A stretch of 64,000 bases of DNA from assembly GCF_001953305.1 (NCBI RefSeq), contig NZ_MTFE01000010.1, forward strand, positions 62,001 through 126,000, read 5' to 3'. The first letter of the stretch is position 1. Every line of letters starts with the position of its first letter. Below are positions 17,259-33,036 of this stretch, in pieces. Origin of the DNA: Cnuella takakiae (GTDB taxonomy: Bacteria > Bacteroidota > Bacteroidia > Chitinophagales > Chitinophagaceae). A model generated the notes under the pieces. It made no database searches and was not told the DNA's origin. It worked only from the letters and a program-made list of their open reading frames with translations. The translations under genes and the position numbers were made by a program.

Positions 17259-19835
17259 TCAATTTAGCGCATACCGCAACGTAACTCCGTATGTCCTGGG
17301 ATCACCAAGCACACCTGCATAGTGGCCGGCGTTACCACCGGCAGGCAGTAACTGCTCATAGTAATCTTTGTCAAATAAATTACGTACCCACACAAAAGCA
17401 GAAAGCCCCTTGGTAGCTTTATAACCTACCCTTGCATTCAGGAGTGTGTAACCATCAATATTCAGGTAGGCTGAAGGGGACGGGCTTGAGGAAAAAGAAG
17501 AACGCGAAAAACCTTCCAGCGCAACAAAGAACCTTCTGATATCTCCAAAGAAGGGAGCTTGTGTGCTGAACTCCCCGCCAAACGATCCTGCCCATTTGGA
17601 TATACCGGGAAGCACGCCACCCGAAATATCCTTAAACGCTTTCTGCACACCATTTTCGGTCAACCCCGTTTCTTCAAGGGGAAGTGGCGCATTGGTGAAT
17701 TTCACATACTTAGCATCCGTGTAGGCTAGTGCACCATAAAAGGAGAAGTGACTACCTGCACGCAGATTTGCATCCACTTCCAGTCCGTTTACGTTTACCT
17801 CCTCGGCATTCGCAAGATAGCCGCGGTTAACACCCAGCTCCGGCGATTGCACATTAGCCTGGTAATTCTTGATGTCCGAATTGTGGTAGGTGATGTTGAA
17901 CGTCAGGTTATCCGTCGGGTTTGTCTTAACGCCAATTTCATAATGCCGCACGTCTTCAGGCTCAATCACTGCCAGGTTGAGGGCCGGCTGGCCATTTACC
18001 GTAGGCAGGCCGGCAACATTCACCCCTATAGGTTTAAAGCTGGTGGCATAAGTGGCAAAGGCGTTGACATGCCTGCCTGGCCGGTAAGCAACCGTCAATT
18101 GGTAGGTAAAGTTCCGTTCATCAGCTTTGGCGGTATAAGCCTGGTTGCTGTAAACACTATTCTTAAATCCTTGCAGGGTTGCCTTGTCGGCAGCCGATCC
18201 GATATAAGTAGCCGTATCTAAACCACCATAGGTTTGCCGGTCATATACCACATCTTTTTCATCATAATTGAAACGGATGCCGGGTAGCACATGCAGTCCC
18301 TTGGCAATCTCCCAATCGAGGTTGGCAAAAGCAGCTGCACTTATGGATTTGATGGACTGCCGGGTGCGGATGCCAAACCCTTCAAAAAGCCCGGGCGTTT
18401 GCCACAGGGGGCTCGTTGAGCTTTGCTGGAAACGCCAGGTAGCCGTACCTGCCTCTTCAAGGGTAACCGGGTCGGATTGTACTTCCTGGCTGATGCCATA
18501 CAGGCCTACCACTCCACTTAAGCGGTTGGAGAAATCACCGGCATAACGTACCTCCTGCGACCACTGGCTTTGCTTGGAATAGTTGTTGGATTTTGCCAGG
18601 GATTGCAAACCTGTAAAATCCCGGTCGTTGGAAGGATCCCATTTCCAATAGCGCCATGCAGTGGTGGCGGTAAGGGTTCCCGGCCCCACCTTGATATCGG
18701 CGTTAAGGGAAGCACCACCCAGGTCATTTCCCGAGTTCCAGGGCGAATCATGATCCACCTTCCGGTCAAAAGCATTGGTGCTGGGCAAACGGTAACCAAG
18801 ATCAGCAATAATGGCATTGAACTGCCTGTAAGCAGGTCGTTGTGTGGGTACCACCCCGGCCACTACCTGGGCATAACCATCGGGTCTTTGCCTCGAATTA
18901 TCCGCAGCCAGTATGATGGAGGTTTTTTCCGAAGGCGTATACAGTAGCTGTGCACGCAGTCCCAGGTTGTTGATGTCATTGATGTTTTTCAGGGTACGGA
19001 TATTCTCGATTACCCCGTCGCGCTGGGTGCCGGAGAAAGACAGCCGGCCTGCCAGTTTTCGGCTCAGGGGGCCGGTCACAGACGCTTTGGCCTGTACAAA
19101 CCCATAATTCCCGAAACTGGTTTCGAAAGTAGCGCCGGGTTTAAACGTCGGCTTCTTGGTGGTGATGTTGAATGCTCCCGAGGTAGTGTTCTTACCAAAC
19201 AAGGTTCCCTGCGGTCCACGCAGCACTTCAATCCGCTCTATGTCTATAAAGTCAAGGGTAGTAGCTGCCGGGCGGGCAAAATAAACACCATCCACGTAAA
19301 AGCCCACACCCGGATCAAGACCATCGTTTGTCAGCCCGAATGGCGAACCAAGACCCCGGATGTTGAGACCCGTATTCCGGGGGTTAGACGAATAAAGCTG
19401 TACCGAAGGAACAAATTCTTTTACCCTGTTCACATTGAAAGAACCCGATTCATCTATCTGTGCGCCGCTGACCACCGATATGGGAATAGGTACATCCTGC
19501 AACAACTCGCGGCGCCGGCGGGAGGTGATCACTACCGTATCCCGCACAAACAAAGCTTCCAAAAGGATGGTCACATCATTGGTGTTGCTGTTTCTGACAA
19601 CAAAATCCTGTTTCCGGAAACCAACAGATGTTACTTGCAGGGTTAAGGGAAATTGTTGGTTATGATTAATTGAAAAGGCCCCGGTAGAGTCGGTGCTCAC
19701 ACCACCCGAAGCATTTTTGATGGTTACACTCGCAAAGGGTATCCCTTCCCTTCTTTCATTGATAACCCGGCCGTTGATTTGCGCAAGGGCAAATAAGGGC
19801 AGGAAGAATACTGCCAAAAGGACTAACTGTCTCAT
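17259..19835 (-). CDS. TonB-dependent outer-membrane receptor
   Basis: A 22-strand TonB-dependent receptor for an unknown substrate. ATG 19835 opens a signal peptide (MRQLVLLAVFFLPLFALAQ); an upstream GTG/ATG frame would add 15 residues ahead of it. Residues 20-100 form a carboxypeptidase-like regulatory domain (INGRVINERREGIPFASV). A plug follows with TonB-box-like VITSRRRRELLQDVPIP, the LNIRGLG motif and VLRGPQGTLFGKNTTSGAFNI. The barrel ends in the typical aromatic-poor YGVTLRYALN. The RRREELQDVPI-type plug is that of single receptors (as in sphingomonads), not of SusC, and no SusD follows. It has its own promoter and the same palindrome as the SusC operon (20088-20113), so it is probably induced together with the sulfur genes upstream. 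Confidence 0.92.
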   Translation of the reverse strand: MRQLVLLAVFFLPLFALAQINGRVINERREGIPFASVTIKNASGGVSTDSTGAFSINHNQQFPLTLQVTSVGFRKQDFVVRNSNTNDVTILLEALFVRDTVVITSRRRRELLQDVPIPISVVSGAQIDESGSFNVNRVKEFVPSVQLYSSNPRNTGLNIRGLGSPFGLTNDGLDPGVGFYVDGVYFARPAATTLDFIDIERIEVLRGPQGTLFGKNTTSGAFNITTKKPTFKPGATFETSFGNYGFVQAKASVTGPLSRKLAGRLSFSGTQRDGVIENIRTLKNINDINNLGLRAQLLYTPSEKTSIILAADNSRQRPDGYAQVVAGVVPTQRPAYRQFNAIIADLGYRLPSTNAFDRKVDHDSPWNSGNDLGGASLNADIKVGPGTLTATTAWRYWKWDPSNDRDFTGLQSLAKSNNYSKQSQWSQEVRYAGDFSNRLSGVVGLYGISQEVQSDPVTLEEAGTATWRFQQSSTSPLWQTPGLFEGFGIRTRQSIKSISAAAFANLDWEIAKGLHVLPGIRFNYDEKDVVYDRQTYGGLDTATYIGSAADKATLQGFKNSVYSNQAYTAKADERNFTYQLTVAYRPGRHVNAFATYATSFKPIGVNVAGLPTVNGQPALNLAVIEPEDVRHYEIGVKTNPTDNLTFNITYHNSDIKNYQANVQSPELGVNRGYLANAEEVNVNGLEVDANLRAGSHFSFYGALAYTDAKYVKFTNAPLPLEETGLTENGVQKAFKDISGGVLPGISKWAGSFGGEFSTQAPFFGDIRRFFVALEGFSRSSFSSSPSPSAYLNIDGYTLLNARVGYKATKGLSAFVWVRNLFDKDYYEQLLPAGGNAGHYAGVLGDPRTYGVTLRYALN

Positions 19836-20087
19836 AAAATTACTTGGTTTGAAGGGCGTGCGAAGCGTAGGAACCCGCATGTTGATACTATTACGAACTT
19901 CCTTTTCAAGCTGTCACCTTCTCATTGAAATGATTGATTTTGGTGTGACGAAATCAGGTTTTAACCAGTACCCTTTACCCATCCAAAGCCTGCGGAACCC
20001 AAGGCCGTATTCCAAACCTTAAACCCGGTATATACGCCGGGTTTACCTGCTTGGGGGTGAGGTAAACTAACTGGTCAAACGCTATTA

Positions 20088-20113
20088 GTCTACTAAATTT
20101 GTAGACAATATTA
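20088..20113 (-). promoter_or_regulatory. TonB-receptor promoter with 19-bp palindromic operator
   Basis: The palindrome GTCTACTAAATTTGTAGAC (20088-20106) directly follows the minus-strand box TAATATTG (20106-20113), which matches TAnnTTTG at all but one position. The receptor start codon lies about 250 bases downstream. The same palindrome type in the same place relative to a -7 box is found before the SusC gene at 33011-33036. Confidence 0.6.
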
Positions 20114-20129
20114 GGGGGAAATTTTATAT

Positions 20130-20159
20130 CCCGCATTTTTCTATTAAAAAAAATGCGGG
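20130..20159 (-). terminator. Terminator closing the sulfur operon
   Basis: A perfect 11-bp stem, CCCGCATTTTT (20130-20140) with AAAAATGCGGG (20149-20159) and an 8-base loop, lies 132 bases after the sulfite dehydrogenase stop. A weaker hairpin with 9-bp arms (20163-20171 and 20204-20212) lies between it and the gene. Together they separate the long operon from the TonB-receptor promoter that starts just beyond. Confidence 0.7.
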
Positions 20160-20290
20160 CGATTGGCAATTCCTGTAATGAATAAGCTGGTATTCAGCAG
20201 TTTAATTGCCAAAAATTTAGGGTTTCAAAAAGTTAGCATGAAACTTTGTCCTGCAGTTTGCGGTAGCGCCTCCTTCGTTGTTAACAAATT

Positions 20291-21544
20291 TTAGCGGATA
20301 TTTTCCGGCCTGAGTAATACGCTGCCATCTCCTTTTATTTGCCAGGAAATGATTGAGTTGACATGATAGCCGCCCATATTAGCGCCCCTTGCCTCCTTCA
20401 GCTGCTCGAGTGTAGGCTGGGTATAACCCGTATCATCCACGGCGCGGCTCATGATCTCGGTGGCCTTGCCATCCCATTGCCACAGGTACCGGAATGCGGT
20501 ATGGGCCTTATCGAGCACGGGCTCCTGCAGTTGTGCCGGCTGCCAGCTTTTGCCCGCATCTGTACTCACTTCCACGCGGGCGATCTTACCACGGCCGCTC
20601 CAGGCAATACCCCGGATCTCGATCCAGCCCTTGTGCACCACTGCCGGGAAGGTGGGAAAAGTGATCACGGAGCGGGCATCCATCACAAAGCTGAACTGCC
20701 GCACCTTGTCGCCCACTTGCTCGGTGTACTTCGATGTTTCCTCGCGGGTCATGAAAGGCTGGTCCGACACTTCGATGCGGCGGATCCATTTTACGTTGGT
20801 ATTGCCCTCCCAGCCGGGCAGCACCAGCCTTGCCGGGTAACCCTGCGCAGGCCTGAGTGCTTCACCGTTTTGCGCAAAAGCGATCATGCCATCCTCCATG
20901 CCCTTGCTTACCGGTATGCTCCGCGTCATCACGGCGGCGTCCGAACCTTCGGCAAGAAACCAGCTGGCTTTGGGATGAATGCCCACCTCGCGGAACAGGG
21001 TGGCCAGCATCACGCCAGTCCACTCGCTCTGGCTGGTGAGCCCGCAAATATCCTGCGGTGTCAGTTGCTCCTTGCCGCTGCGGAAATTGCCCGAGCATTC
21101 CAGGAAAAAGATGCGCGAAAAGGAAGGGAACCGTTTCAGGTCGGCGAGCGTGAACACGGTGGGCCGTTCCACCATACCATGGATCAGCAGCTCGTATTTA
21201 TGCGGGTCGATGGCTGGTATGCCACCGTGGTGGCGCTCGAAGTGCAGGTCGGAGGGTGTGATGGTGCCATACAGGTCCTGCAGCGGCGTACGCGATGAGG
21301 TATCGGAAGGCTTGCGTACCGGTTGTTCAAAAGGCGACCGGTCGCCCAGCTGACTGGGCAGGGGTCCCAACACCTTGGTTGGGTCCTGCAACAGCAGGCT
21401 GTCTTTGGCCAGTCCTGCCTGGATCACCTGGCCGGAGCTTTGTTTGAGCAAAACAGCGGCTGCCGTGGCAGCCATGCCGCCCAGCAAATGACGCCTGCTT
21501 AGCTTTCGGCCTTTGTTCGGCTGGTTTTTGGAAACATCGTTCAT
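20291..21544 (-). CDS. Sulfite dehydrogenase, molybdopterin subunit (SoxC / sulfite-oxidase family)
   Basis: A periplasmic molybdenum enzyme expected to oxidise sulfite to sulfate. The N-terminus carries a twin-arginine signal (KLSRRHLLGGMAATAAAVLL), consistent with export of a folded cofactor protein. The molybdopterin domain follows (about 90-290), with the Mo-ligating Cys in FFLECSGNFRSG. The C-terminal Mo-co dimerisation domain of immunoglobulin type lies at about 295-417. Length 417 fits SoxC. The cytochrome c gene ends 8 bases upstream on the same strand, matching the SoxCD pairing in which electrons leave through the cytochrome. The sulfate exporter and other sulfur genes precede it in the operon. 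SoxXYZAB genes are not in the window, so a stand-alone sulfite dehydrogenase role is more likely than thiosulfate oxidation. Confidence 0.9.
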   Translation of the reverse strand: MNDVSKNQPNKGRKLSRRHLLGGMAATAAAVLLKQSSGQVIQAGLAKDSLLLQDPTKVLGPLPSQLGDRSPFEQPVRKPSDTSSRTPLQDLYGTITPSDLHFERHHGGIPAIDPHKYELLIHGMVERPTVFTLADLKRFPSFSRIFFLECSGNFRSGKEQLTPQDICGLTSQSEWTGVMLATLFREVGIHPKASWFLAEGSDAAVMTRSIPVSKGMEDGMIAFAQNGEALRPAQGYPARLVLPGWEGNTNVKWIRRIEVSDQPFMTREETSKYTEQVGDKVRQFSFVMDARSVITFPTFPAVVHKGWIEIRGIAWSGRGKIARVEVSTDAGKSWQPAQLQEPVLDKAHTAFRYLWQWDGKATEIMSRAVDDTGYTQPTLEQLKEARGANMGGYHVNSIISWQIKGDGSVLLRPENIR

Positions 21545-21552
21545 AAAATACC

Positions 21553-22146
21553 TTAACGGATTTGAGCACCACCGGTACGGTTGTCCGGAACAAATAGTTG
21601 CTGTGCAGGCATCACCACTTTTGGCAAGGTTTGCGCATCCATGACGCTGGTAGAATCGACCAGGCCATTGGCATGGAGCAGGTAAGCCGTGAGGTGGTAC
21701 ACTTCTGCATTCGTCAGCGAGCCGGGGGCATTGAAAGGCATCGCCCTTCTTACATAATCAAACAAAGTGGTGGCATAGGGCCAGTAGTTGCCAATGGTTT
21801 TTGCTTTTGAGGTATCACTGCTTACCAGGTGGTTGAAGGGCCCTTCCACGCCGGTATTGCCATGACAGGATGCGCATTTTGCCGCATAGATGGCACGGCC
21901 CTGCACTGCCGTACCGGCACCGGCCGGCAGGCCTTTGCCATCGGGCCGCACATCAATGTCCCATGCAGCAACCTGCTGCTCGGTGGCCGGTTTGCCTAAG
22001 CCAAATTGCTCCGGCCAGCCTTTTGTCTCCAAGGCATCGGCAGTTGTTTTTTCATTACAACCCCACAACAGTAAGGATAGCGTAAAGCATAGGAGTAACC
22101 TGCAGCCCCCGAAGGGCCGCAAGTAAGCATTGCGTAGTATGTTCAT
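21553..22146 (-). CDS. Lipoprotein c-type cytochrome, electron acceptor of sulfite dehydrogenase (SoxD-like)
   Basis: A 197-residue monohaem cytochrome c. It has a lipoprotein-type N-terminus with lipobox LLWGC (about residue 30), so it is probably tethered to the membrane on the periplasmic side. The haem-binding motif is CASCH (about residue 92) and the likely axial Met is in RRAMPFNAPG (about 138). The segment IDVRPDGKGLPAGAGTAVQGRAIY-like before the haem is typical of SoxD-type cytochromes. It is 8 bases upstream of the molybdopterin subunit and 7 bases after the exporter gene, so all three should be translated from one message. Confidence 0.9.
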   Translation of the reverse strand: MNILRNAYLRPFGGCRLLLCFTLSLLLWGCNEKTTADALETKGWPEQFGLGKPATEQQVAAWDIDVRPDGKGLPAGAGTAVQGRAIYAAKCASCHGNTGVEGPFNHLVSSDTSKAKTIGNYWPYATTLFDYVRRAMPFNAPGSLTNAEVYHLTAYLLHANGLVDSTSVMDAQTLPKVVMPAQQLFVPDNRTGGAQIR

Positions 22147-22153
22147 CGCTTAA

Positions 22154-23461
22154 TTATCCAAACAGTACAAAAGCAATAGCGAGGGTAACCAGGATGTTGA
22201 AGACCTGTGCAATCAGGAAGGCATAGAGGGGCTTCTTGCTGTTCTGGCGGAACAGGTCGGCGAAGTTGGTCTCCAGCCCGATGCTGGTAAAAGCCAGTGC
22301 AAACCACAATCCCTGCAGGTTTTTCAAACTATCCTTTACAGTGGCCGTTGTTTCCGGCGACACGGCAAAAGAGAACAGCAGCGAGGCCGCCACAAAGCCT
22401 AGTACGAACTTGGGAAAACGATCCCAGATTACTTTCAACGTAGGCTTTTTATCGGCATCGTTGGCTCCGGCGTGCTTCGAATAGGTCCAGTATACCGAGA
22501 TGGCAAAAGCCGCAAGGCCCAGCAGCACGTTCTGCGAAAACTTGACGATGGTACTGATCTTAAGTGCCGTTTCGCCCACCAGTGTACCCGATGCCACTAC
22601 GGCGCCGGTTGTATCGATGCTGCCACCCAGCCAGGCACCCGTCACTTCCTGGGGGAAGTTGAAATAGCTGGCGATATAGGGCATGAAGATCATCATGGGG
22701 ATGGCCGTGATCAGCACCATGGATATAACGTAAGACAGCTTCTTTGAGTCACCCTTGATGGCACCCGAAGTGGCAATGGCAGCCGACACCCCGCAGATGG
22801 AAACCGCGCTGGCGATCATCATCCGCAGCTCGTCATCTACCTTCAGCTTCTTGCACACCCAGAATGCAAAGTACCATACCGACAGTACTACCAACAGTGC
22901 CTGTATCAGGCCCAGCGAACCCGCCTTGAGGATATCGGAAAAGATGACACCGGTGCCCAGCAATACGAGCCCGATCTTAACAAACAGCTCCGTTGACAAG
23001 GCAGCGCGGAACCAGTCGGGCAGGCGAAACAGGTTACCGATCAACAAGCCGATGGTTAGGCTGAAAATAACAGCTTCCAGGTTGAAGCTTTTGATGGTGG
23101 CATTGCCCGCAATGATCAATGCTACGATGGTCAGCACATACACGGCAGGGAAAACAAGCGCCGATGATTTCACCGGTTTGCCACCCAGCCAACTGCCGAT
23201 GATGGCTACGGCAAATACATACAGGAACTGCAGGCCGATGATGCCGAGGTTGGCTGGCGCCAGCACTTTTGAAAAAAGCTCGCCGCTGTTCTTCCAGCCA
23301 AAGGAAGGCACGGGCAGGATAAAACCGAATAAGGTGATGCCAATGATCAGGAACCCGAGTACCACTACCACCCAATCTTCATGGAGTGAAAATCTGCGGG
23401 GTGCGGGGTACGACACTGGTTCAACCGGCGTTGGCTGCACTAATGTTTCTGTGGTTTGCAT
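22154..23461 (-). CDS. YeiH/UPF0324-family putative sulfate exporter
   Basis: An inner-membrane protein of 435 residues with about ten to eleven hydrophobic segments, belonging to the YeiH (PSE) family. Members are proposed to export sulfate formed in sulfonate or taurine metabolism. The family-typical stretches WFRAALSTELFVKIGLVLLG, SAVSICGVSAAIATSGAIKGD and GGSIDTTGAVVASG are all present. Its start overlaps the end of the FAD oxidoreductase gene by 41 bases, which suggests translational coupling, and it is followed at 7 bases by the cytochrome gene. Between an oxidase that makes sulfate and a transport operon, disposal of sulfate is the reasonable role. Confidence 0.88.
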   Translation of the reverse strand: MQTTETLVQPTPVEPVSYPAPRRFSLHEDWVVVVLGFLIIGITLFGFILPVPSFGWKNSGELFSKVLAPANLGIIGLQFLYVFAVAIIGSWLGGKPVKSSALVFPAVYVLTIVALIIAGNATIKSFNLEAVIFSLTIGLLIGNLFRLPDWFRAALSTELFVKIGLVLLGTGVIFSDILKAGSLGLIQALLVVLSVWYFAFWVCKKLKVDDELRMMIASAVSICGVSAAIATSGAIKGDSKKLSYVISMVLITAIPMMIFMPYIASYFNFPQEVTGAWLGGSIDTTGAVVASGTLVGETALKISTIVKFSQNVLLGLAAFAISVYWTYSKHAGANDADKKPTLKVIWDRFPKFVLGFVAASLLFSFAVSPETTATVKDSLKNLQGLWFALAFTSIGLETNFADLFRQNSKKPLYAFLIAQVFNILVTLAIAFVLFG

Positions 23462-24908
23462 GTAAGGGGGTTGGTTCTAATTTGAAAATGTCTTTTAAAG
23501 CCTGCTTTGCGGCATGGTAGCCGCACATGCCGTGCACACCGCCACCGGGCGGCGTGGACGACGAACAGATATAGATGCCTTTTGCAGCAGTACGGTAAGG
23601 CGAGTAACGCAAGGCAGGCCGGGTAAACAACTGGCCCACATCGAGAATGCCGCCATTGATATCACCGCCAATAAAGTTGGGGTTGTAGGCTTCCATCTGC
23701 GCCGTGTTCATGGTATGACGACCGATGATGCGTTCGCGGAAACCCGGCGCAAAACGTTCTACCTGGTTTTCGATGGCAGCAGTCATGTCCCTGGTCGACC
23801 CGTTGGGCACATGGCAATAGGCCCATGCTGTGTGTTTGCCTTTTGGCGCCCGCGACACATCAAATAGGCTTTGCTGTGCCAGCAGCACAAAGGGCTTTTC
23901 AGCATGGCCGCCCTTTGATGTAAGTTGCTCACCTAACGCAATCTCTTCAATGGTATTGCCCAGGTGCACCGTGCCTGCAGTGCGGCATCCTTCGGCGGCA
24001 AAGGGTATGGCATCATCCAGTGCCCAGTCGACCTTGAACACACCCATGCCATACCGGTAGCGGTTCAGCTGCCACTGGTACAGCGATGAAAAACGGTAGC
24101 CTGCAATCTGCAACAACTGGCGGGGCGTAACATCAAACAACACCGCGTGGGCATCGGGGAGCTGGCGCAGGCTGCTTACATAAAAGCCAGTCTGGATATG
24201 CCCGCCGAGGGATACAAAATAGCTGGCCAGTGCCCGGGCAACGGAGTGCGATCCGCCCAGGGGCACCGGCCACCCGCGCAGGTGTCCCACAGCCATCAGC
24301 ACCAGCCCGATGGCGGATGTGGTGAGGTTGGAAAGCGGTTGTATGGAATGTGCCGCCATCCCGGCCCATAATCCCTTTGCTTCGCGGGTGGAAAAACGCT
24401 TCGACAGGTACAGTGCCGAGGTGACGGCTTTGAGCCCAAAGCGCGCCATAGCAAGCGGGTGTTTGGGCAAATGCAAGGGGCCCAACACATCGCGGTCAAT
24501 CAGTTGCCAGTCCCCGGTTACTTCCTGCATCAGCCGGCGATACACATCGGCATCGGCACCCAGCAGCCGCGCTGTTTCTTCAATGCTGCCTTTGAGCACG
24601 GCTGCCGTGCCATCATCAAAGGGATGGGCAGCAGCTACCGGCGGGTACACAAACTGCAGTCCGTGTTCGGCAAGGGGCAGTGTTTGAAAAAAGGGGGAAC
24701 CTGCCGCAAGCGGGTGTATCGCAGAGCAGGTATCGTGCAAAAATCCGGGCAGGGTAAGCTCCTGTGTGGACAGGCCACCGCCAATCTCGTTCCTGCCTTC
24801 AATCAACAGCACAGAGCAGCCTGCCTGCTGCATGGCTATTGCTGCAGCCAGCCCATTCGGCCCGGATCCAACCACTACGGCATCATAATCTTTCTTCGGT
24901 AAAGGCAT
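23421..24908 (-). CDS. NAD(P)/FAD-dependent oxidoreductase, phytoene-desaturase-like
   Basis: A flavoprotein of 495 residues. The dinucleotide-binding Rossmann motif is VVVGSGPNGLAAAIAMQQAG (residues about 11-30), continued by the family GG motif EIGGGLST. The C-terminal FAD-contact segment reads GIYICSSSTPPGGGVHGMCGYHAA, as in phytoene-desaturase-like and carotenoid-isomerase-like oxidoreductases. No signal peptide is visible, so the enzyme is cytoplasmic or membrane-associated. It lies in the sulfur operon; its 3' end overlaps the exporter gene, and 170 bases separate it from the DoxX-like gene upstream. The substrate is not predictable. In this context oxidation of an organosulfur compound is possible, while carotenoid chemistry is the default family function. 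Confidence 0.8.
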   Translation of the reverse strand: MPLPKKDYDAVVVGSGPNGLAAAIAMQQAGCSVLLIEGRNEIGGGLSTQELTLPGFLHDTCSAIHPLAAGSPFFQTLPLAEHGLQFVYPPVAAAHPFDDGTAAVLKGSIEETARLLGADADVYRRLMQEVTGDWQLIDRDVLGPLHLPKHPLAMARFGLKAVTSALYLSKRFSTREAKGLWAGMAAHSIQPLSNLTTSAIGLVLMAVGHLRGWPVPLGGSHSVARALASYFVSLGGHIQTGFYVSSLRQLPDAHAVLFDVTPRQLLQIAGYRFSSLYQWQLNRYRYGMGVFKVDWALDDAIPFAAEGCRTAGTVHLGNTIEEIALGEQLTSKGGHAEKPFVLLAQQSLFDVSRAPKGKHTAWAYCHVPNGSTRDMTAAIENQVERFAPGFRERIIGRHTMNTAQMEAYNPNFIGGDINGGILDVGQLFTRPALRYSPYRTAAKGIYICSSSTPPGGGVHGMCGYHAAKQALKDIFKLEPTPLHANHRNISAANAG

Positions 24909-25078
24909 CAGGAACTCCTTCCAACTAAGTTATCGGTTATTGACCAGAGGCTGTCTTAGAAATACAGTTTTACGGTAAGTCAAACTTGAAGAGCAATTGG
25001 TATAAATCCAGTTACCCTCAGCAGGTAATTTTGCCTTTTGACTTACATCTGCTTGCTTAGTTCATTACGTGATAATCA

Positions 25079-26713
25079 TCAATACTCCCCTGCTACCAGC
25101 GTGCTTTTCGATAGCGCGTACTTTTTATCGGCACGATCCAGCACTACGTATATCGAATCTTTGTTTTCGTTGACACCGGTTAGGATCACCCTTGAGCCAT
25201 CGGTGGTGCTGTAGCGCAACACCATCCGTGCCCGTTTGATCTTTTCCTTCGACTCTTTTTCAATACCCCTGGTACGGCGGGTAGAGCGGGCCCGCTCGTC
25301 GATCTTAAGGTCTTCACTCCCGATCACCGCCAGTGAAGCCGCAGGTATCCAGGATTTCCGGGGTTCTTTCGCGGCAGCTTTTGTTTTGGCCTCTGTATCC
25401 CCATTGGAACTGTTACCTTCCACCACCCGGCGGCGGCGGTTGGATGCCGTGTTTTTATCCTGCAGGAACAGGAGGTTATTCACGGTATCGGCATCATAGT
25501 AAAACACGCGCCTGCCGCCGCCAACACCCGTAAGCTCAAAGGTTCGGTTGATGTCGCGCATGGGCGAGCCCCCGCCATTCGACAGGTCGAGTTGTACCGG
25601 CTTATTAACCTTGAATGTTAGCGTAGACCATTTTTCAAAAGTAGCCTCTTGCCAGCGCACGGTATCAAAAGGCGAATAAGGAATCACCTTGTTGTTCAGC
25701 CGGAACTCCGTTACGTTGTAAAAGCCACGCAGTTGCGCTACCCCTTTCGTTGCAGGTTGCTTGTACGGATCGTAGCGAAAGTTGACATACTGCAGGTAAA
25801 ACAACAGTCCCAGGAAAATAAAGATCGTTGCGGCCTTCAAACCAATACGGGTAGCTTTTAGCCAGCCCTGCTGAAAAGAAGGATAATAGCTTTTTGGAAT
25901 GGTGAGGCGCTGCCGGATAAAATAGTCGTACAACACCGGTATGTCCTGGATCATCAGAAAAGCAGCCAGCAGTACAAAGTACGAGCTGTACACATGCACG
26001 CCGCCGTCATAAGCAAAGTTGACATACACGATATCGCCCAGCGCACCAAAGAGCAGGATGGCACCCAGCAGGGTGGTTTTGCGGAAGAACAGGAAGGTGC
26101 CCGCAGCCAATTCCACGATGCCTGCAAACACCTGGTACCAGGGCACAATGCCAATAGAGAGCCAGTAGATCTTTTGCGCTGTCAGGTCGCCAAAATCAGT
26201 GTTCAGCAACCCTTCCGAAGGATAAGGCATCTGCACCGGCAACAGCTTGGTAAAACCAAAGCCAATGATGCCGATGCCTGCACGGTAACGAACGATCACA
26301 CGGAGCCAGTAATACAGGTCGTTGTACGAACGGCGCTTGCGGTCGATTACCGTCCATACCAGCCCCAGTGCTATTGCCACACCCAGCGTGATGATCCAGT
26401 TGGCATAGCCCAGCAGGTTATTGCCCCATATGGCATCGCCTACAAAACTGAACCCCGACGAAAAACGGGCCAGGTCGTAGATATCGCGGTAGTGCAGGCT
26501 GGTCCAGTCCATGGTAAACAAATGCTGGTACCAGCCGGCATCGGTAGGCAGCGACATAAATACGAAGAACACAAAGGAAATACGCAGCAGCACTTTCTGC
26601 CAGCCTTTCCATGCACCGACATTTGGCTGCCGGCTGCCTGCACCGGCTACCGGGTTATCGGCAGGAAGCACGGGCCTGTCCAGCAAGGTTTGGTTTGCAA
26701 CAACGGTCGACAT
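25079..26713 (-). CDS. DoxX-like membrane protein with long charged insertion
   Basis: A 544-residue membrane protein. Residues 30-310 hold about seven hydrophobic helices of DoxX type, with a central YYWLRVIVRYRAGIGIIGFGFTKLLP block and FAGIVELAAGTFLFFRKTT. A soluble C-terminal domain ends LTGVNENKDSIYVVLDR. DoxX/DoxD proteins are membrane partners of quinone-linked sulfur oxidoreductases, for example thiosulfate:quinone oxidoreductase, which fits the operon. It is a paralogue of the next gene upstream (26751-28094), but carries about 95 extra residues rich in R, K, E and S (around 400-490, RRRRVVEG to KESKEKIKRA) inside the soluble domain. The spacing to the paralogue is 37 bases. Confidence 0.75.
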   Translation of the reverse strand: MSTVVANQTLLDRPVLPADNPVAGAGSRQPNVGAWKGWQKVLLRISFVFFVFMSLPTDAGWYQHLFTMDWTSLHYRDIYDLARFSSGFSFVGDAIWGNNLLGYANWIITLGVAIALGLVWTVIDRKRRSYNDLYYWLRVIVRYRAGIGIIGFGFTKLLPVQMPYPSEGLLNTDFGDLTAQKIYWLSIGIVPWYQVFAGIVELAAGTFLFFRKTTLLGAILLFGALGDIVYVNFAYDGGVHVYSSYFVLLAAFLMIQDIPVLYDYFIRQRLTIPKSYYPSFQQGWLKATRIGLKAATIFIFLGLLFYLQYVNFRYDPYKQPATKGVAQLRGFYNVTEFRLNNKVIPYSPFDTVRWQEATFEKWSTLTFKVNKPVQLDLSNGGGSPMRDINRTFELTGVGGGRRVFYYDADTVNNLLFLQDKNTASNRRRRVVEGNSSNGDTEAKTKAAAKEPRKSWIPAASLAVIGSEDLKIDERARSTRRTRGIEKESKEKIKRARMVLRYSTTDGSRVILTGVNENKDSIYVVLDRADKKYALSKSTLVAGEY

Positions 26714-26750
26714 GGTTGGATGTTTAAGGGTTCACATGATGTTTTGCGAC

Positions 26751-28094: not shown

Positions 28095-28153
28095 GACTCG
28101 ATGTTTTTGTTACACCTGCAGCAGTTTGCGCCTGCTGCAGGTGGGGGTTGGTA

Positions 28154-29497
28154 TCAGTAGCCCGGGTTTTGCTCCAGGGCTTTATCGATCAGTCGTTGTT
28201 CGGCAGGGATGGGCAGCAGCACCCTGTTGGGATCGGTGAGGTTGAGCACTGCGGCTGCCCTGCCCGTACGCACCAGGTCGAACCAGCGGTGCGGCTCAAA
28301 TGCAAACTCGATGCGGCGTTCGTTTTCGATGGCCAGCAGGAGTTCGTCTTTGGTTGCTGCTGTTGCTGGAAGCAGACCGGCCCGGTCCCTTACGGCATTG
28401 AGGTCGCTGAGTGCGCCGGCCAGTTTCGCCCCATCCTGCTGCGCCCTTGCTTCCGCCCGGATCAGGTAGAGCTCGGCAATGCGGATCACATAGCTGGGGT
28501 CGGCGGCGGGGTTGCGGTAGTACAGGTTGCCATACCAGCGGCCCTGGTTGTCTTTTGCCACCAGCACATTGCGGTTGCCGCCTACCAGCGGGTCGTTTAC
28601 CAATGCCACAAATGCATCATTGGGCGCCCACTGGCGGGTACCGCCTTTCTCCTGCGGCTGCCACTGGCCGCGATGGCCATTGGTTTCGGTGGGACTATAA
28701 AAAATTTCAAATACCGACTCCTGTGTGCCCCGCACATCGTTGGCAAAAAAGGCGCTATAGGGTTTCAGCAGGCGGTAGTTGTTGTCGGCAATCAGCTTGT
28801 CAGCATAAGCCTCCGCGTTTGCCCAGTCTTTTTGGTACAGGTAAAAACGGGCCTTGAGCGCCCACACGGCTTTTTGTGTGGCACGGTAGCGGTCGGTGGT
28901 GGGAGGCAGCAAAGGCTCTGCAGCATCGAGGTCTTTAAGCACCTGTGCATAGGTTCCGGTGAGCGATGCACGGGGTACACCGATATTGTCCTCCTGGCTC
29001 AATGTAGGCTCCGTTATCAGGGGCACACCGCCCCAGGTGCGTGCCAAATCGAAATAGGCAAGGGCCCTGATGAAATAGGCTTCCCCTACGATCTGCTTTT
29101 GCAGCGCTGGTGTCAGTTTTCCTTCCTCCAAAGCGCCTACCCTGCTGATGACATTGTTGGCCCTGTTGATGGTGCGGTAAATGGCAATCCAAGCCGCGTT
29201 GATGGTCGAGTTGTCGGCGTTTACCTTGTGGTTGATAAACTCCTGCACCTGCGACTGCGAGCCGGTCCACTGGATATTGTCGCCGGACAGGTAGCCGATG
29301 GATTGAAAGCTGGTGCCATAATAGCCGCCGTCGGCCAGTGCGCTGTACACGCCGCGCAGGGCTGTTTCGGCCGATGCCTGGTCGAAGATGGGTTGGTCGT
29401 CGGAAATGGAAGCCTTGGGCTCCACGTCAAGGTATTTTTCGCAGGAGCTGAAAGCAACCAGCAGCAGCAAAAATCCCAGGTATTTTATTGTGTTCAT
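28154..29497 (-). CDS. SusD/RagB-family nutrient-binding outer-membrane lipoprotein
   Basis: The surface lipoprotein partner of the SusC transporter. The ATG at 29497 is chosen because it opens a lipoprotein signal (MNTIKYLGFLLLLVAFSSC, followed by EKYLDVEPKA); an in-frame ATG at 29536 would bury it. The N-terminal TPR-like SusD domain is visible (QASAETALRGVYSALAD, then AYFIRALAYFDLARTWGGVPL). The C-terminal domain ends in the usual RRIEFAFEPHRWFDLVRTGRA and LLPIPAEQRLIDKALEQNPGY. Only 40 bases separate it from susC. Unlike polysaccharide loci, no glycosidase follows; sulfur genes do, so the pair probably imports a sulfur compound or a sulfated or sulfonated organic. Confidence 0.92.
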   Translation of the reverse strand: MNTIKYLGFLLLLVAFSSCEKYLDVEPKASISDDQPIFDQASAETALRGVYSALADGGYYGTSFQSIGYLSGDNIQWTGSQSQVQEFINHKVNADNSTINAAWIAIYRTINRANNVISRVGALEEGKLTPALQKQIVGEAYFIRALAYFDLARTWGGVPLITEPTLSQEDNIGVPRASLTGTYAQVLKDLDAAEPLLPPTTDRYRATQKAVWALKARFYLYQKDWANAEAYADKLIADNNYRLLKPYSAFFANDVRGTQESVFEIFYSPTETNGHRGQWQPQEKGGTRQWAPNDAFVALVNDPLVGGNRNVLVAKDNQGRWYGNLYYRNPAADPSYVIRIAELYLIRAEARAQQDGAKLAGALSDLNAVRDRAGLLPATAATKDELLLAIENERRIEFAFEPHRWFDLVRTGRAAAVLNLTDPNRVLLPIPAEQRLIDKALEQNPGY

Positions 29498-29537
29498 GGT
29501 AATCTGTTGGTTTGTTGAAAGGCCATTGCGGTGCACG

Positions 29538-32500
29538 TTACAAGGTCAGGTTTACACCCACCTGGATACCCCTGGGCTGCGGTGGTGTGCCCAGGTCAAT
29601 ACCCTGTTCGTTTTGCCCGCTGCCCGCACTCGACTCGGGATCAAGTCCCGTGTATTTGGTCCAGGTGAACAGGTTGCTGCCTACGGCATAGAAGCGCACG
29701 GTTTGCAGACCGGCCTTTTGCGTCAGGGTTTTGGGCAGGGTGTAGCCAAGGGTAAGCGATCGCAGGCGCAGGAAAGAGCCGTCTTCCAGCCAGCGGCTGC
29801 CGCCATCGCGGTAGTTGTTTACGTTCACGCCATCGGGCCTTGGCACATCGGTGATGTCGCCGGGCTTTTGCCAGCGATCCAGGTTGCTGGCAAGGATCAC
29901 ACGGGCGGCATCGCGGGCACCGCCACCATCACCAAAGAAGCGGTTGTGGTTGTAAATCTTGTTGCCATACTGGAAAGAAAGAAACACACCTGCATCAAAG
30001 CCACGGTAGGTGATATTGTTGGTAAGCCCACCAAAGAACTTAGGCCAGATGCTGCCATAGATCTGTCGGTCATCGGTAGTGATGGTGCCGTCCTTATTCA
30101 CATCCTCATACACGGCATTGCCTGTTTGCGGGTCCACATACAATTGCCTGTACACCCAGAAAGAATACAAGGGGTAGCCCTGCTGTTGCAATATCAGGTC
30201 GCGGCTGCCATACTTGAGTGGCGCGTTCAGCTTTTCGATCCGGTTCTTGTTTTGCGCGATGTTGAAGCTGGTGTTCCAGGTAAAGTTCTGGTTGCGGACG
30301 TTGGTTGAATTGATCACCAACTCAAAGCCCCTGTTGCTGATCTCGGCGGCATTGCTCCAGTAGCTGCTATAGCCGGAAGATGCGGGTTGCGACACCAGCA
30401 GCAGGCCATCGCGGGTGTACTTATGATAAGCATTGAACTCTACGTTCAGCCGGTCACGAAACAGGCCCAGGTCGATGCCCACATTGGCCTGTGTTGTTTT
30501 CTCCCAGCGCAGGTCCTGGTTGGACAGTTGCTGCGGTGCCGTACCGGCGCTACCCTGGTAGGGTGTGCCACCCGACCATAAACCAAGCGCAGCAAAATCA
30601 CCAATACCATTCTGGTTGCCGGTGGTGCCATAGCTGGCACGCAGTTTCAAAGTGGAAACCTGTTCCAGGTTTTTCAGGAAATCTTCCTGGTCAACTTTCC
30701 ACGCCAAGCCCACAGCAGGGAAATAACCCCACTTGTTGTCCTTACCAAAGCGCGAAGAAGCATCGGCACGAACACTGAAATCAACCAGGTACTTGCCGGC
30801 ATAACCATAACCCACTTTTGAAAAGAAAGACACCAGGTTGCTCTTGGTCCAAGACTGCGAAGCGGTTGTGGTTGCGGCAGAAGAAATAAGTTTAAACGAG
30901 TTGTTGGCAAAACCCCGTCCTTCAGCAGCGGTTCGGGTATACACATCGCTTTGCAGGGTATTGCCCACCAGTGCGCCGAAGTTGTGCTTACCACCCCGCT
31001 TGCGATAAGAAAGGGTTTGCTCGTTGAGCAGCGAAGTAAACTGGCCGATGGAAGAAGTAGCCAGACCATTGGGGCTGCCGGAGATCAGGAAAGTATTCCA
31101 GTATTCCGACTCGTTGTAGTTGTTGTAATCGGCACCAAAGCTGGAGCGGAACTTCAGGTTGGGCAGCAGCTCCGCATCGATGTACAGGTTGCCGATATAA
31201 CGAAGACTTACCGAGCTCACATCGTAGTGCTCGAGCAGCAGGCCGACGTTGTCAAAACCGGCACGCCCCACGGGCACCCCCTGTTCGTTGAAAGGCGACA
31301 GGTAGGTGGGTGTATGGAGGGCAGCCTGCAGCAAGCCACCTGCCGGCCCATCACCGGCCCTTGCCTGGTTGCGGTAGGTGCGGGTAAAGGTATTGCTCAC
31401 ACCCAACTGTACTTTTTCGTTGATCTTCTGATCGAGGTTTACCTTGAAGCTGGCGCGGTTAAAATCAATGGGCCGCAGGATCGCTTCCTGTTTGTTGAAG
31501 CCGCCACCGATATAATATTTGGTGGTTTTGGTACCCCCCGTCAGCGACACATCGTAGTTCTGCAATTGCGCCGTGCGAAACACTTCACCCAGGCGATCAT
31601 AGGTCTTTTGCTCCTCAGGCAATCCACGGCCGCCTTCTGCCACAGGGCGGAAGGGCCTGTTGGCAAAGCTGCGGTTGAGTGCAGGGTTGTCCAGGCCGGT
31701 GTTGATCCACCATTCGTTTACCAATGTAGCATGTTCGGGACCGGTAGTAAGGTCCCATAGTTTGGCTGCTTTTGCCCAGCCCTGAGATACATTAAGACTG
31801 ACGGTAGGCCGCTGGTTGAAGCTGCCGCGTTTGGTAGTGATCAGGATCACGCCATTGGCGCCACGCGAACCATAAAGTGCGGTTGCTTCCGCATCTTTCA
31901 ATACTTCGATGCTTTCGATGTCGGCGGGGTTGATGTCGGAAATAGGCGATGTGGCCTTTCCACCGGTACCAATGGTTTGCAGGGTGTTGTTGTTGATGAA
32001 CACACCATCCACTACGTACAAAGGATCATTGTCGGCATTGATAGAAGTTGCGCCGCGCACCCGGATGTTTACCGCTTCACCGGGCACACCCGTATTGCTC
32101 GATATCTGCACACCGGGCACCTTGCCCTGGAGCTGCGCATCGAAGCTGCCAGCAGGAATATTGCGGGTTTCGGCGGGGTTGATCTTGGTTACAGATCCAA
32201 TCAGGTTTTTACGCTGCTGGGTACCATAACCCACTACCACCACATCGCTTAGCTGGTTTGCTGCCTGGTGCAGGCCCACTATAAAGGGCGCTTCAGATAC
32301 CTGCGTGGTATCGAGTGCTTCAAACCCAACATAACTGATGCTATAGGTTACCGGCAGTCGCTGGCCGGTGAGGAAGTTGAACTCGCCTTTATTGTCGGTC
32401 ACCACTTCGTGTGTAGTGCCCTTGATGTGCACCGTGGCACCTGCCAAAGGTTGCCTGGTGAGGGCATCAACAACCTTTCCCCGGATGGTGATATTATTCT

Positions 32501-32606
32501 GTGCGTCTTGTGCCTGTGCAGCTGCACCAAAGCACAAAAGAGCGGAAGTCAAAAAGAAACTATGGAATGTTCGCCAGCCCGAAGCCAGTGCCTTTTCCTT
32601 GATCAT
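29538..32606 (-). CDS. SusC/RagA-family TonB-linked outer-membrane transporter
   Basis: A 1022-residue TonB-dependent transporter that works with the SusD lipoprotein. It has a signal peptide ending AAAQAQ, then a carboxypeptidase-like domain (ITIRGKVVDALTRQPLAGA). The TonB-box-like VVVVGYGTQQRKNLIGSV comes next, and the plug carries the SusC signatures IRVRGATSINADNDPLYVVDG and TALYGSRGANGVILITTK. The long barrel ends PRGIQVGVNLTL. It is the first gene of the operon that runs to the sulfite dehydrogenase. A promoter with a palindromic operator lies about 405 bases upstream, and an 18-bp hairpin stands 80 bases before the start codon, so both transcription initiation and the leader may be regulated. 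Confidence 0.94.
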   Translation of the reverse strand: MIKEKALASGWRTFHSFFLTSALLCFGAAAQAQDAQNNITIRGKVVDALTRQPLAGATVHIKGTTHEVVTDNKGEFNFLTGQRLPVTYSISYVGFEALDTTQVSEAPFIVGLHQAANQLSDVVVVGYGTQQRKNLIGSVTKINPAETRNIPAGSFDAQLQGKVPGVQISSNTGVPGEAVNIRVRGATSINADNDPLYVVDGVFINNNTLQTIGTGGKATSPISDINPADIESIEVLKDAEATALYGSRGANGVILITTKRGSFNQRPTVSLNVSQGWAKAAKLWDLTTGPEHATLVNEWWINTGLDNPALNRSFANRPFRPVAEGGRGLPEEQKTYDRLGEVFRTAQLQNYDVSLTGGTKTTKYYIGGGFNKQEAILRPIDFNRASFKVNLDQKINEKVQLGVSNTFTRTYRNQARAGDGPAGGLLQAALHTPTYLSPFNEQGVPVGRAGFDNVGLLLEHYDVSSVSLRYIGNLYIDAELLPNLKFRSSFGADYNNYNESEYWNTFLISGSPNGLATSSIGQFTSLLNEQTLSYRKRGGKHNFGALVGNTLQSDVYTRTAAEGRGFANNSFKLISSAATTTASQSWTKSNLVSFFSKVGYGYAGKYLVDFSVRADASSRFGKDNKWGYFPAVGLAWKVDQEDFLKNLEQVSTLKLRASYGTTGNQNGIGDFAALGLWSGGTPYQGSAGTAPQQLSNQDLRWEKTTQANVGIDLGLFRDRLNVEFNAYHKYTRDGLLLVSQPASSGYSSYWSNAAEISNRGFELVINSTNVRNQNFTWNTSFNIAQNKNRIEKLNAPLKYGSRDLILQQQGYPLYSFWVYRQLYVDPQTGNAVYEDVNKDGTITTDDRQIYGSIWPKFFGGLTNNITYRGFDAGVFLSFQYGNKIYNHNRFFGDGGGARDAARVILASNLDRWQKPGDITDVPRPDGVNVNNYRDGGSRWLEDGSFLRLRSLTLGYTLPKTLTQKAGLQTVRFYAVGSNLFTWTKYTGLDPESSAGSGQNEQGIDLGTPPQPRGIQVGVNLTL

Positions 32607-32685
32607 TGCAGATGATTTAAGTTGAATGCGGGAGAAGTGTTATCTTGAAGTGCTGCTACCTTTTCTACAGAGCATAGCAAGCCCT

Positions 32686-32773
32686 TTGTTTGCTGAACAA
32701 CAGCCGGCAGGTGCACAATAGCCAATCGCCGACTTTTATGCACAACAGGTCCGGTCTGTTGTTCAGCAAACAA
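32686..32773 (-). promoter_or_regulatory. Long hairpin in the susC leader
   Basis: A perfect 18-bp inverted repeat (32686-32703 and 32756-32773; core TTTGCTGAACAACAG) encloses 52 bases that also contain two copies of TTGTGCA. It falls between the predicted promoter and the susC start codon, 80 bases from the latter. It could act as an attenuator, protect the message, or be the relic of a small mobile repeat. No known riboswitch was recognised. Confidence 0.5.
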
Positions 32774-33010
32774 CATGTATAGGCTTGTCAAATAGCAAAC
32801 TGCTATTTGCGCTGATCAACTCACTCTGTCAGGTAATCCTGATCAACTACAGCAAGAACAGGGAAATGGAGATGGTAAAACAAAAGACATCGCCATTGAG
32901 GATGGGGCAGTAAACTTCACTGTGTACATTTCTGTAAACTTTGGTTAGGTTAATGGGTTGTGGGCAAACAATGCTGGCGATTAACAGTGCTTACCCACTG
33001 GTGAACTATA

Positions 33011-33036
33011 GTCCACCATTTTGGTAGACAAATATA
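33011..33036 (-). promoter_or_regulatory. susC operon promoter with 19-bp palindromic operator
   Basis: On the minus strand TATATTTG (33029-33036) is an exact TAnnTTTG box with a TTG 20 bases upstream. The palindrome GTCCACCATTTTGGTAGAC (33011-33029) begins in its last base, exactly as at the TonB-receptor promoter. The leader to the susC start is about 400 bases. The rest of 32774-33460 shows no gene. Confidence 0.7.

What the first reader, a model, noticed from the sequence alone, without database searches (positions are those of the whole stretch)
17259..33036. Sulfur locus with two transporters tied together by a shared promoter-operator palindrome
Two 19-bp palindromes, GTCCACCATTTTGGTAGAC (33011-33029) and GTCTACTAAATTTGTAGAC (20088-20106), share arms of the form GTCyAC/GTAGAC. 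Both overlap the last base of a predicted minus-strand -7 box, TATATTTG and TAATATTG. One controls the susC-susD-doxX-doxX-FAD-yeiH-cytochrome-soxC operon, the other the lone TonB receptor. Same motif, same spacing and different genes argue for one repressor and one regulon. The operon joins outer-membrane uptake, a redox enzyme, sulfite oxidation and sulfate export, which reads as a route for taking an organosulfur compound to sulfate. I know of no described pathway with exactly this gene order, and no regulator gene lies inside the locus.
Basis: partly seen in the sequence, partly recalled or inferred. Interest (0 to 1): 0.75.

Follow-up and report, generated by a model that had tools for sequence, protein, structure and literature searches.

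The report
Cysteine-sensing leader RNAs of a sulfur regulon
A bacterium of the Chitinophaga family appears to switch on sulfur-scavenging genes through a shared DNA operator and, behind it, an unusual RNA leader in which a short cysteine-rich reading frame sits between two RNA loops that match each other; this looks like an undescribed way to sense cysteine shortage.

Summary
Both palindromes are real and rare: GTCYAC-N7-GTRGAC occurs 6 times in 5.70 Mb. The other sites precede a SusCD-sulfatase-FGE operon, a chromate transporter, a fatty-acid-hydroxylase/tRNA-Cys unit and another SusCD; a seventh (1 mismatch) precedes an SfnG/SsuD-like monooxygenase. In relatives the operator precedes cysD, sulfatases and TonB receptors. 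A CymR/IscR-like Rrf2 protein in the cysH-cysD-cysN cluster is the best candidate repressor: of 147 family genomes, 38 have the operator, all among the 99 with this protein and none among the 48 without. One regulon is well supported.

The susC leader, like 34 of 80 relatives' leaders, encodes a short peptide ending in cysteines. In a subclass that includes the window, the 7-nt loop of a 5' hairpin is exactly complementary to the apical loop of a long hairpin 210-297 nt downstream, with two matched loop types (AAUCGCC/GGCGAUU, AACCACC/GGUGGUU), and to a second site inside the uORF about 13 codons before the cysteines. I read this as a cysteine-starvation attenuator working by competing loop pairings. 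Sign, output step and the operon's substrate are unknown. No experiment was possible; ten literature searches found no description.

The parts
33011..33029 (-). Operator palindrome of the susC operon, GTCTACCAAAATGGTGGAC; first G is the last base of the -7 box
   Evidence: one of 6 genome sites
33029..33036 (-). -7 box TATATTTG of the susC operon promoter (consensus recalled, not from a call)
   Evidence: sequence
32961..32998 (-). Leader hairpin H1; 7-nt loop L1 AAUCGCC at 32976-32982, within TGTTAATCGCCAGCA (32972-32986)
   Evidence: MFE fold; 4 exact copies of TGTTAATCGCCRGCA in the genome, each 6-24 nt after an operator
32843..32929 (-). uORF, peptide MYTVKFTAPSSMAMSFVLPSPFPCSCCS; cysteine-rich codons at 32849-32860
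   Evidence: poly-Cys uORF enrichment in relatives
32889..32894 (-). Site A, GGCGAU inside the uORF, complementary to 6 of 7 bases of loop L1, about 11 codons before the first Cys codon
32686..32773 (-). Leader hairpin H2, long stem with site B at its apex
32724..32730 (-). Site B, GGCGAUU, exact reverse complement of loop L1
29538..32606 (-). SusC-type TonB-dependent outer-membrane transporter; start codon about 72-80 nt after H2
   Evidence: TIGR04056 808 bits
28154..29536 (-). SusD-type lipoprotein
   Evidence: PF14322, PF07980
26751..28094 (-). 'DoxX-like' membrane protein 1 (no DoxX model match)
25079..26713 (-). 'DoxX-like' membrane protein 2, paralog of the former
23421..24908 (-). FAD-dependent oxidoreductase; best NCBIfam match CrtO-like, far below cut-off
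22154..23461 (-). YeiH/PF03601-type membrane transporter, putative
21553..22146 (-). c-type cytochrome
   Evidence: PF13442; CASCH
20291..21544 (-). SoxC-type sulfite dehydrogenase
   Evidence: TIGR04555 above cut-off
20106..20113 (-). -7 box TAATATTG of the lone receptor promoter
   Evidence: sequence
20088..20106 (-). Operator palindrome of the lone receptor, GTCTACAAATTTAGTAGAC; no Cys uORF or H1 behind it
17259..19880 (-). Lone TonB-dependent receptor; homologs L163 (62.5%), L222 (70%) and L107 (60%) also have an operator upstream

Best explanation
The palindrome is the operator of a sulfur/cysteine-limitation regulon. Most likely an Rrf2-family repressor (CymR/IscR-like, encoded in the cys cluster beside peroxiredoxin, cysH, cysD and cysN) binds over the -7 box and start site and blocks transcription when sulfur is plentiful. 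Behind the operator of the susC operon the RNA leader adds a second, cysteine-specific check. A ribosome translates a short uORF that ends in cysteine codons. The loop of a 5' hairpin (L1) can pair either with site A inside the uORF, about 13 codons before the cysteines, or with site B at the apex of a long hairpin just before the gene. A ribosome (or a queue of two) held at the cysteine codons when Cys-tRNA is short changes whether site A is free, and so shifts L1 between A and B and changes expression of the transporter operon. Supported by comparison: operator and regulon, cysteine uORFs, L1-B complementarity in two matched loop types, site A. Inferred: repressor identity and signal, exclusivity of A and B, sign of control, and whether the output is translation, Rho-dependent termination or RNA stability. 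H2 is not followed by a long U-run in 12 of 13 leaders, so it is not an ordinary intrinsic terminator.
For: Targets: sulfatase and FGE (the genome has 6 sulfatases), SfnG/SsuD-like monooxygenase, below equivalog cut-offs, SoxC, in G003 cysD; in relatives TonB receptor plug 24, TonB 20, PhyH 10 of 76 first genes, sulfatase 5 of 48 later genes. Repressor: close homolog in 99 of 147 genomes, operator in 38, all inside the 99, Fisher p 1.5e-8; reversed-pattern control p 0.49; the gene lies in the cys cluster here and in G003. uORF: at least 3 Cys in the last 8 residues in 34 of 80 leaders; antisense 1, upstream 3 and 4, 50 shuffles mean 1.1, max 3. Loops: H1 pattern in 394 genomes, 54 matches, reversed control 9. 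Of 55 sites read, site B in 12 of 16 with an operator and 2 of 39 without. Among the 8 operator sites first met in that scan: 6 have B, 1 lacks it, 1 is cut by its contig end. H2 closing stem: 5 of 5 pairs changed on both sides; whole structure covariation 0.336, shuffled 0.176, 0 of 500. B at the apex of a stem of 26-43 bp in 13 of 13 folds. Site A in 15 of 15 uORFs; 2000 codon shuffles mean 0.98, max 5 of 15.
Against: No expression or binding data. 61 of 99 genomes with the Rrf2 homolog have no operator within 1 mismatch; in 8 of the 99 the best match is only 43-54% identical and may be a paralog; related genomes are not independent, so the Fisher value overstates. The Rrf2 protein is below the equivalog cut-offs for IscR and CymR. 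46 of 80 relatives' leaders miss the poly-Cys threshold, and the lone receptor, ChrA and SfnG-like sites have no Cys uORF. Two own leaders with H1 (both in L009) have no site B, and one has no Cys run; L259 has H1 but neither uORF nor B. Three of eight SusCD-DoxX-like loci (L218, L221, L223) have no operator within 2 mismatches. The 13 rows were chosen for an exact L1-B match, so 100% pairing there is by construction, and H1's inner four pairs are fixed by the search pattern; 'further pair types' did not beat the shuffles (52 of 500). The distance window for site A (-18 to -10 codons) was set after seeing the data. H1 does not fold as drawn in 1 of 13 (L256). A general complementarity test on 34 poly-Cys leaders gave no signal for most.
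Confidence: 0.72

Rival explanations
1. Only the DNA operator and the cysteine codons matter: the uORFs are ordinary cysteine leader peptides, and the H1/H2 fold is a binding site for a protein or small RNA rather than a switch.
For: Cys uORFs occur without matched loops in many relatives. Some operator leaders with H1 lack site B (L009 twice, L259), so H1 may have a partner in trans.
Against: Site B matches L1 in both loop types and lies at the apex of H2 in 13 of 13. Site A follows the same two types at a similar distance from the Cys run in 15 of 15 uORFs. No intrinsic terminator was found in the window leader.
Confidence: 0.2
2. The palindrome is bound by another regulator (not the cys-cluster Rrf2), for example a paralogous Rrf2 protein or a factor that merely co-occurs with it.
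For: The homolog is also present in 61 genomes without a close operator; the own genome has three Rrf2 genes; other transcription factor families were not profiled.
Against: All 38 operator genomes hold this homolog (E 2.1e-50 or better); the two other same-genus genomes of the 147 lack both; operators lie about 1.5-19 kb from the gene in G003, G051, G137, G038, G002 and G029 (coordinates).
Confidence: 0.22
3. The operon is for dissimilation: an organosulfur compound used for carbon or energy, its sulfite oxidised by SoxC and exported as sulfate.
For: SoxC, cytochrome c and a YeiH-like gene in one operon; sibling operons with an MBL-rhodanese protein.
Against: The operator and the cysteine uORF point to control by sulfur or cysteine shortage, that is scavenging; other targets (sulfatase/FGE, SfnG-like, cysD) are scavenging or assimilation genes.
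Confidence: 0.25
4. Chance: the motif, uORF and loop matches are coincidences.
For: Short motifs and short ORFs arise easily; 2 of 39 sites without a close operator also have a downstream complement (one of them, L261, looks like a true leader).
Against: Shuffle and reversed-pattern controls.
Confidence: 0.02

Closest known systems
Polycysteine uORFs of mycobacterial cys operons (Canestrari et al. 2020 seen only as a title in a reference list; prediction in PMC1262725, abstract and passages seen)
   Same: Short ORF with a run of cysteine codons near its stop upstream of sulfur genes; no obvious terminator.
   Different: Other phylum; here a palindromic operator overlaps the promoter, and in the window's subclass a hairpin loop is complementary to two further sites. 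PMC1262725 reports no conserved hairpin that could act as terminator in the Mycobacterium cys leaders.
uORFC-8-2 motif upstream of cysS in Rhodobacterales (PMC8632094, abstract and passages seen)
   Same: Cysteine codons in a uORF, proposed to sense Cys-tRNA.
   Different: That motif ends in a U-run like an intrinsic terminator; 12 of 13 leaders here have no run of more than 5 T in the 40 nt after H2. No loop-loop pairing in the passages I saw.
LEU element, pseudoknot upstream of leuA in Actinobacteria (PMC1262725, passages seen)
   Same: Leader peptide combined with a pseudoknot or an alternative structure.
   Different: There the leucine codon run pairs with the Shine-Dalgarno box; here the sites that pair with the loop are separate from the cysteine codons.
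CymR / IscR regulons (biology recalled; models)
   Same: Rrf2 winged-helix protein, sulfur genes, inverted repeat at the promoter.
   Different: Below both equivalog cut-offs; four cysteines (91, 100, 103, 108) shared with the G003 homolog, where IscR has three (recalled); SusCD and TonB-receptor targets.
SoxC / SorA-type sulfite dehydrogenases
   Same: SoxC model matched above cut-off; c-type cytochrome next door.
   Different: No other sox gene among the operon proteins scanned; coupled to SusCD uptake genes.

Membership tests
Ribosome-mediated amino-acid attenuator (leader peptide type) | uORF with a run of codons for the regulated amino acid | tested here: met
   (window: Cys-Ser-Cys-Cys)
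Ribosome-mediated amino-acid attenuator (leader peptide type) | mutually exclusive RNA pairings around the uORF | tested here: inconclusive
   L1 is complementary to both A and B; exclusivity follows from the shared loop but was not measured
Ribosome-mediated amino-acid attenuator (leader peptide type) | intrinsic terminator or sequestered ribosome site as output | tested here: inconclusive
   no terminator in the window leader; no long U-run after H2 in 12 of 13; sequestration of the start not tested
Ribosome-mediated amino-acid attenuator (leader peptide type) | response to starvation for that amino acid | not testable with these tools
   needs reporter or RNA-seq
Described RNA family (Rfam 15) | match to a curated covariance model | tested here: not met
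   window 0 matches at gathering score; 15 leader loci gave four tRNAs and one hit below its gathering score, E 0.047
CymR | NCBIfam equivalog NF047409 above cut-off | tested here: not met
   64.7 against 195 bits
IscR | NCBIfam equivalog TIGR02010 above cut-off | tested here: not met
   73.1 against 207.55 bits
Rrf2 superfamily | PF02082 / TIGR00738 above cut-off | tested here: met
   109.8 bits each, against 30 and 73.3
SoxC sulfite dehydrogenase | TIGR04555 above cut-off | tested here: met
   478.9 against 420 bits
DoxX | match to PF07681 or related models | tested here: not met
   no DoxX match at E 1 for either protein; a structure job failed, so the fold was not compared
YeiH sulfate exporter | TIGR00698 above cut-off | tested here: not met
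   98.7 against 232.6 bits; PF03601 is met

The most novel reading that the evidence does not exclude
A cysteine-sensing leader in which the ribosome's position on a cysteine run decides which of two sites, one inside the uORF and one at the apex of a long downstream hairpin, forms a kissing-type pairing with the loop of a 5' hairpin. That would be attenuation by exchange of a loop contact rather than by exchange of antiterminator and terminator stems, stacked under an Rrf2-type operator that may also govern a tRNA-Cys gene.
Probability: 0.5. Interest if true: 0.85.

Novelty: new variant of a known kind. Interest (0 to 1): 0.7.

Why it matters
It gives Chitinophagaceae a testable sulfur regulon with a defined operator, a candidate repressor and a defined RNA element, and it points to a mode of leader-peptide control that does not use an ordinary terminator hairpin. 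It also proposes a physiological signal (sulfur or cysteine shortage) for several SusCD and TonB transporters that are usually read as glycan systems, including the SoxC operon of the window.

Tried and rejected
The palindrome followed by TTAATCGCC was found only in the own genome among 147 family genomes, so the leader element first looked species-specific. It proved wider once the second loop type was seen in relatives.

A general search for complementarity between the leader start and the uORF or the region after it in the 34 poly-Cys leaders gave no signal above shuffles for most. The loop pairing is therefore a subclass, not a property of all cysteine leaders.

Rfam gave no leader family. 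Ten literature searches listed no paper on this operator, on cysteine leaders in Bacteroidota or on the loop pairing, judged from titles, abstract starts and passages of four papers; the library lacks most subscription journals. The Canestrari paper was not held. PMC9723704 mentions leader-peptide attenuation before amino-acid operons in Flavobacterium psychrophilum (passages).

DoxX by fold: a structure job was unfinished and reported as failed; I did not hand it in again. A PDB sequence search of DoxX-like 1 found nothing at E 1.

H2 as an intrinsic terminator was considered and dropped; L251 alone has a T7 run.
Full report
Observation. In the window nothing else comes close. In the whole genome GTCYACN7GTRGAC occurs at six places (reversed control two); GTCTACN7GTAGAC at five (reversed control none); with up to one mismatch in TTGTCTACN7GTAGACTA there are seven. 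The box before the palindrome begins with TA in four of the seven and is looser at ChrA, at the second L009 site and at the SfnG-like site.

What the sites precede in this genome. (1) the window's SusC-SusD-DoxX-like-DoxX-like-FAD-YeiH-cytochrome-SoxC operon and (2) the lone TonB receptor; (3) a ChrA chromate transporter; (4) SusC-SusD-sulfatase-unknown-FGE; (5) a fatty-acid hydroxylase unit; (6) another SusC-SusD; (7) a one-mismatch site before a RimK-like ATP-grasp protein, a flavin monooxygenase closest to SfnG (239.8 bits, cut-off 382.95) and a redoxin. The genome has six sulfatase matches, and the best-scoring one is in unit 4.

Across species. Of the 80 loci held, 72 have titles that I place in the Chitinophagia (by recall of the genera; one is '[Flexibacter] sp. 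ATCC 35208'); the others are four unclassified Bacteroidetes MAGs, two loci of a MAG titled Williamsia, one Mucilaginibacter and one Sphingobacteriales MAG. Several loci come from one species or genus, so they are not independent. First downstream genes (76 found for 80 loci): TonB receptor plug 24, TonB 20, PhyH 10, aminotransferase class V (cysteine-desulfurase type by its start) 3, sulfatase 1. Later operon genes (48 scanned of 55 listed; the other seven were first genes already scanned or copies and a short one): short-chain dehydrogenase 10, SusD 6, sulfatase 5. In G003 the palindrome sits directly before cysD in a cluster Rrf2-peroxiredoxin-cysH-[operator]-cysD-cysN-...-cysJ-cysI (cysH, cysD, cysN, cysJ-like and cysI named by models). 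In G103 it stands between a siroheme-synthase/TauE fusion gene, which follows sulfite reductase genes, and a homolog (62.5%) of the window's lone receptor.

Conservation of the window's own units. DoxX-like 1 was sought in 298 genomes of the order; 38 have a match. I fetched eight loci (seven genomes) with the best paired matches. All eight have SusC, SusD and two DoxX-like genes. The operator lies upstream of SusC in five (L216 and L217 1 mismatch, L220 0, L219 and L222 2) and is not found within 2 mismatches in three (L218, L221, L223); four of the five have a Cys-ended uORF. The enzyme part varies: SoxC plus cytochrome in L216 and L221; YeiH in L216, L218 and L219; FAD enzyme in L216, L217, L219, L222 and L223, with a metallo-beta-lactamase/rhodanese protein in L217, L222 and L223; none of these in L220. 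In Paracnuella aquatica (L107; SusC 87% identical over 790 residues) the SusC gene and a receptor (60% to the lone receptor) are divergent neighbours, and each has its own operator.

Candidate repressor. The genome has three Rrf2 genes. One lies in the cys cluster: (OsmC-like by its start)-Rrf2-peroxiredoxin-cysH-cysD-cysN. A close homolog is in 99 of 147 family genomes (E 1.7e-34 or better; the best among the rest is 6.5e-11); in eight of the 99 the best match is only 43-54% identical and may be a paralog. The operator (up to 1 mismatch) is in 38 of the same 147, all among the 99 and all with a match of E 2.1e-50 or better; the reversed pattern shows no such link. The two other same-genus genomes in that sample have neither. 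Relatedness inflates the p value of 1.5e-8. The protein is closest to IscR and CymR but below both cut-offs; four cysteines are shared with the G003 homolog, so it may bind a metal or cluster. Binding is not shown.

Cysteine uORFs. In the 80 relatives, 34 leaders have an ATG uORF with at least three cysteines in its last eight residues; the antisense strand gives 1, the upstream region 3 and 4, and 50 dinucleotide shuffles a mean of 1.1 and a maximum of 3 (one leader held only 241 nt). Units 2, 3 and 7 have none, and unit 5 has a uORF without a Cys run.

The paired loops. TGTTAATCGCCRGCA occurs exactly four times in the genome, each time 6-24 nt after an operator. It forms a hairpin with a 7-nt loop AAUCGCC in all four predicted folds. 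In the window and in unit 4 the exact complement GGCGAUU follows 241 and 229 nt later, at the apex of a long stem. In L106, L108 and L216 the loop is AACCACC and the partner GGUGGUU. A scan of 394 family genomes for TGTTAAYCRCCRGCA gave 54 matches in 48 genomes; the reversed control gave 9. I read all 54 plus L107, which was added because it was already known. Of 16 sites with an operator (up to 3 mismatches) 12 have the complement 210-297 nt downstream; of 39 without, 2 do, and one of these (L261) looks like a true leader with a 5-mismatch operator. Some of the 16 are the cases in which the pattern was found (window, L008, L107, and L230, L235, L250, which are or repeat L108, L216 and L106). 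Among the eight operator sites met for the first time, six have B (L239, L251, L252, L255, L256, L263), L259 has none, and L264 is cut by its contig end. The remaining two sites without B are the L009 leaders of the own genome.

On 13 leaders with B (the 12 and L261), the L1-B helix is paired in every cell, by construction, because rows were chosen for an exact match; two of its seven pairs exist in two forms (C-G/U-A and A-U/G-C). The five closing pairs of H2 all show changes on both sides. The whole structure beats all 500 shuffles and all slid versions on paired cells and on covariation score, but not on further pair types (52 of 500). H1's eight pairs are 81.7% paired; its inner four are fixed by the search pattern. 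Site B sits at the apex of a stem of 26-43 bp in 13 of 13 folds, its outer G and U pairing with each other in most; H1 folds with the 7-nt loop in 12 of 13.

Site A. All 15 uORFs found behind these H1 hairpins contain at least five bases complementary to the loop of their own leader, 11.3-16.3 codons before the Cys run: GGCGA with AAUCGCC, GGUGG with AACCACC. Codon shuffles reach five bases there in a mean of 0.98 and at most 5 of 15 in 2000 trials; the distance window was set after seeing the data. Between the window and Paracnuella (L107) the peptides differ in most positions but keep site A and a cysteine-rich end, as expected if the RNA and the codons, not the peptide, matter.

Mechanism. 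I propose operator control by an Rrf2 repressor plus an attenuator in which L1 chooses between A and B according to ribosomes on the uORF. Site A begins about 34-40 nt before the first Cys codon in 14 of 15 uORFs (49 nt in L250), about where a second, queued ribosome would sit behind a stalled one (footprint recalled). In that version starvation masks A and favours L1-B; but a lone stalled ribosome would leave A free and favour L1-A. The sign cannot be decided from sequence. No leader but L251 has more than five consecutive T in the 40 nt after H2, so the output is more likely translation, Rho action or stability.

Function of the operon. SoxC with cytochrome c and a YeiH-like protein fits sulfite handling, but the co-regulated genes and the cysteine sensor suggest scavenging under sulfur shortage rather than energy gain. 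The imported substrate is unknown. The DoxX label is not confirmed by family models.

Novelty. Cysteine uORFs are known from Actinobacteria and Rhodobacterales, and a leader peptide with a pseudoknot from leuA (abstracts and passages of PMC1262725 and PMC8632094; Canestrari et al. only as a reference title). I found no report for Bacteroidota cysteine leaders or of the two-site loop pairing in ten searches, nor an Rfam family. I file it as a new variant of leader-peptide control.

Noticed in passing
L009:10281-11572; L261, L263, L264: A tRNA-Cys gene follows a fatty-acid-hydroxylase-type gene by 5-11 nt and precedes an operator/H1 leader in the own genome and three relatives (SusC seen behind it in all but L264, whose contig ends; the operator of L261 has 5 mismatches). 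In the own genome the hydroxylase unit itself has an operator, so tRNA-Cys may belong to the regulon.
   Followed up: partly
L009:10162-10232: A tRNA-Ser(GCU)-like gene lies between the operator and the hydroxylase gene.
   Followed up: no
L039, L062, L077, L081, L094, L099, L102, L104: Second leader class: the Cys-ended uORF starts only 16-20 nt after the operator, ahead of genes whose starts look like PhyH (PhyH in 10 of 76 first genes, SDR in 10 of 48 later genes), with no room for H1 before the uORF.
   Followed up: partly
L164:3112-7600: In G018 an operator precedes a DUF2490 gene and a PBP_like_2 binding protein, two permeases and an ATPase of an ABC transporter; the starts look Pst-like, possibly a sulfate importer of phosphate type.
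   Followed up: partly
L111:54-752, L112:6651-7349: Operator directly before a 4Fe-4S dicluster protein (model shown for L111), with a following gene set that resembles HdrBC by recall.
   Followed up: no
window 20130-20170: Hairpin CCCGCATTTTT...AAAAATGCGGG between soxC and the receptor promoter, probably the end of the operon transcript.
   Followed up: no
L217:10146-11585, L222:10144-11589, L223:8533-9969: Sibling SusCD-DoxX-like operons carry a protein with metallo-beta-lactamase and rhodanese domains and have no SoxC or YeiH match.
   Followed up: partly
L259: Operator and H1 directly before a DoxX-like gene with neither uORF nor site B; H1 may have a further role or a partner in trans.
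   Followed up: no
L163:4491-5996: Siroheme synthase fused to a TauE/SafE sulfite exporter domain, just before an operator and a receptor homolog.
   Followed up: no
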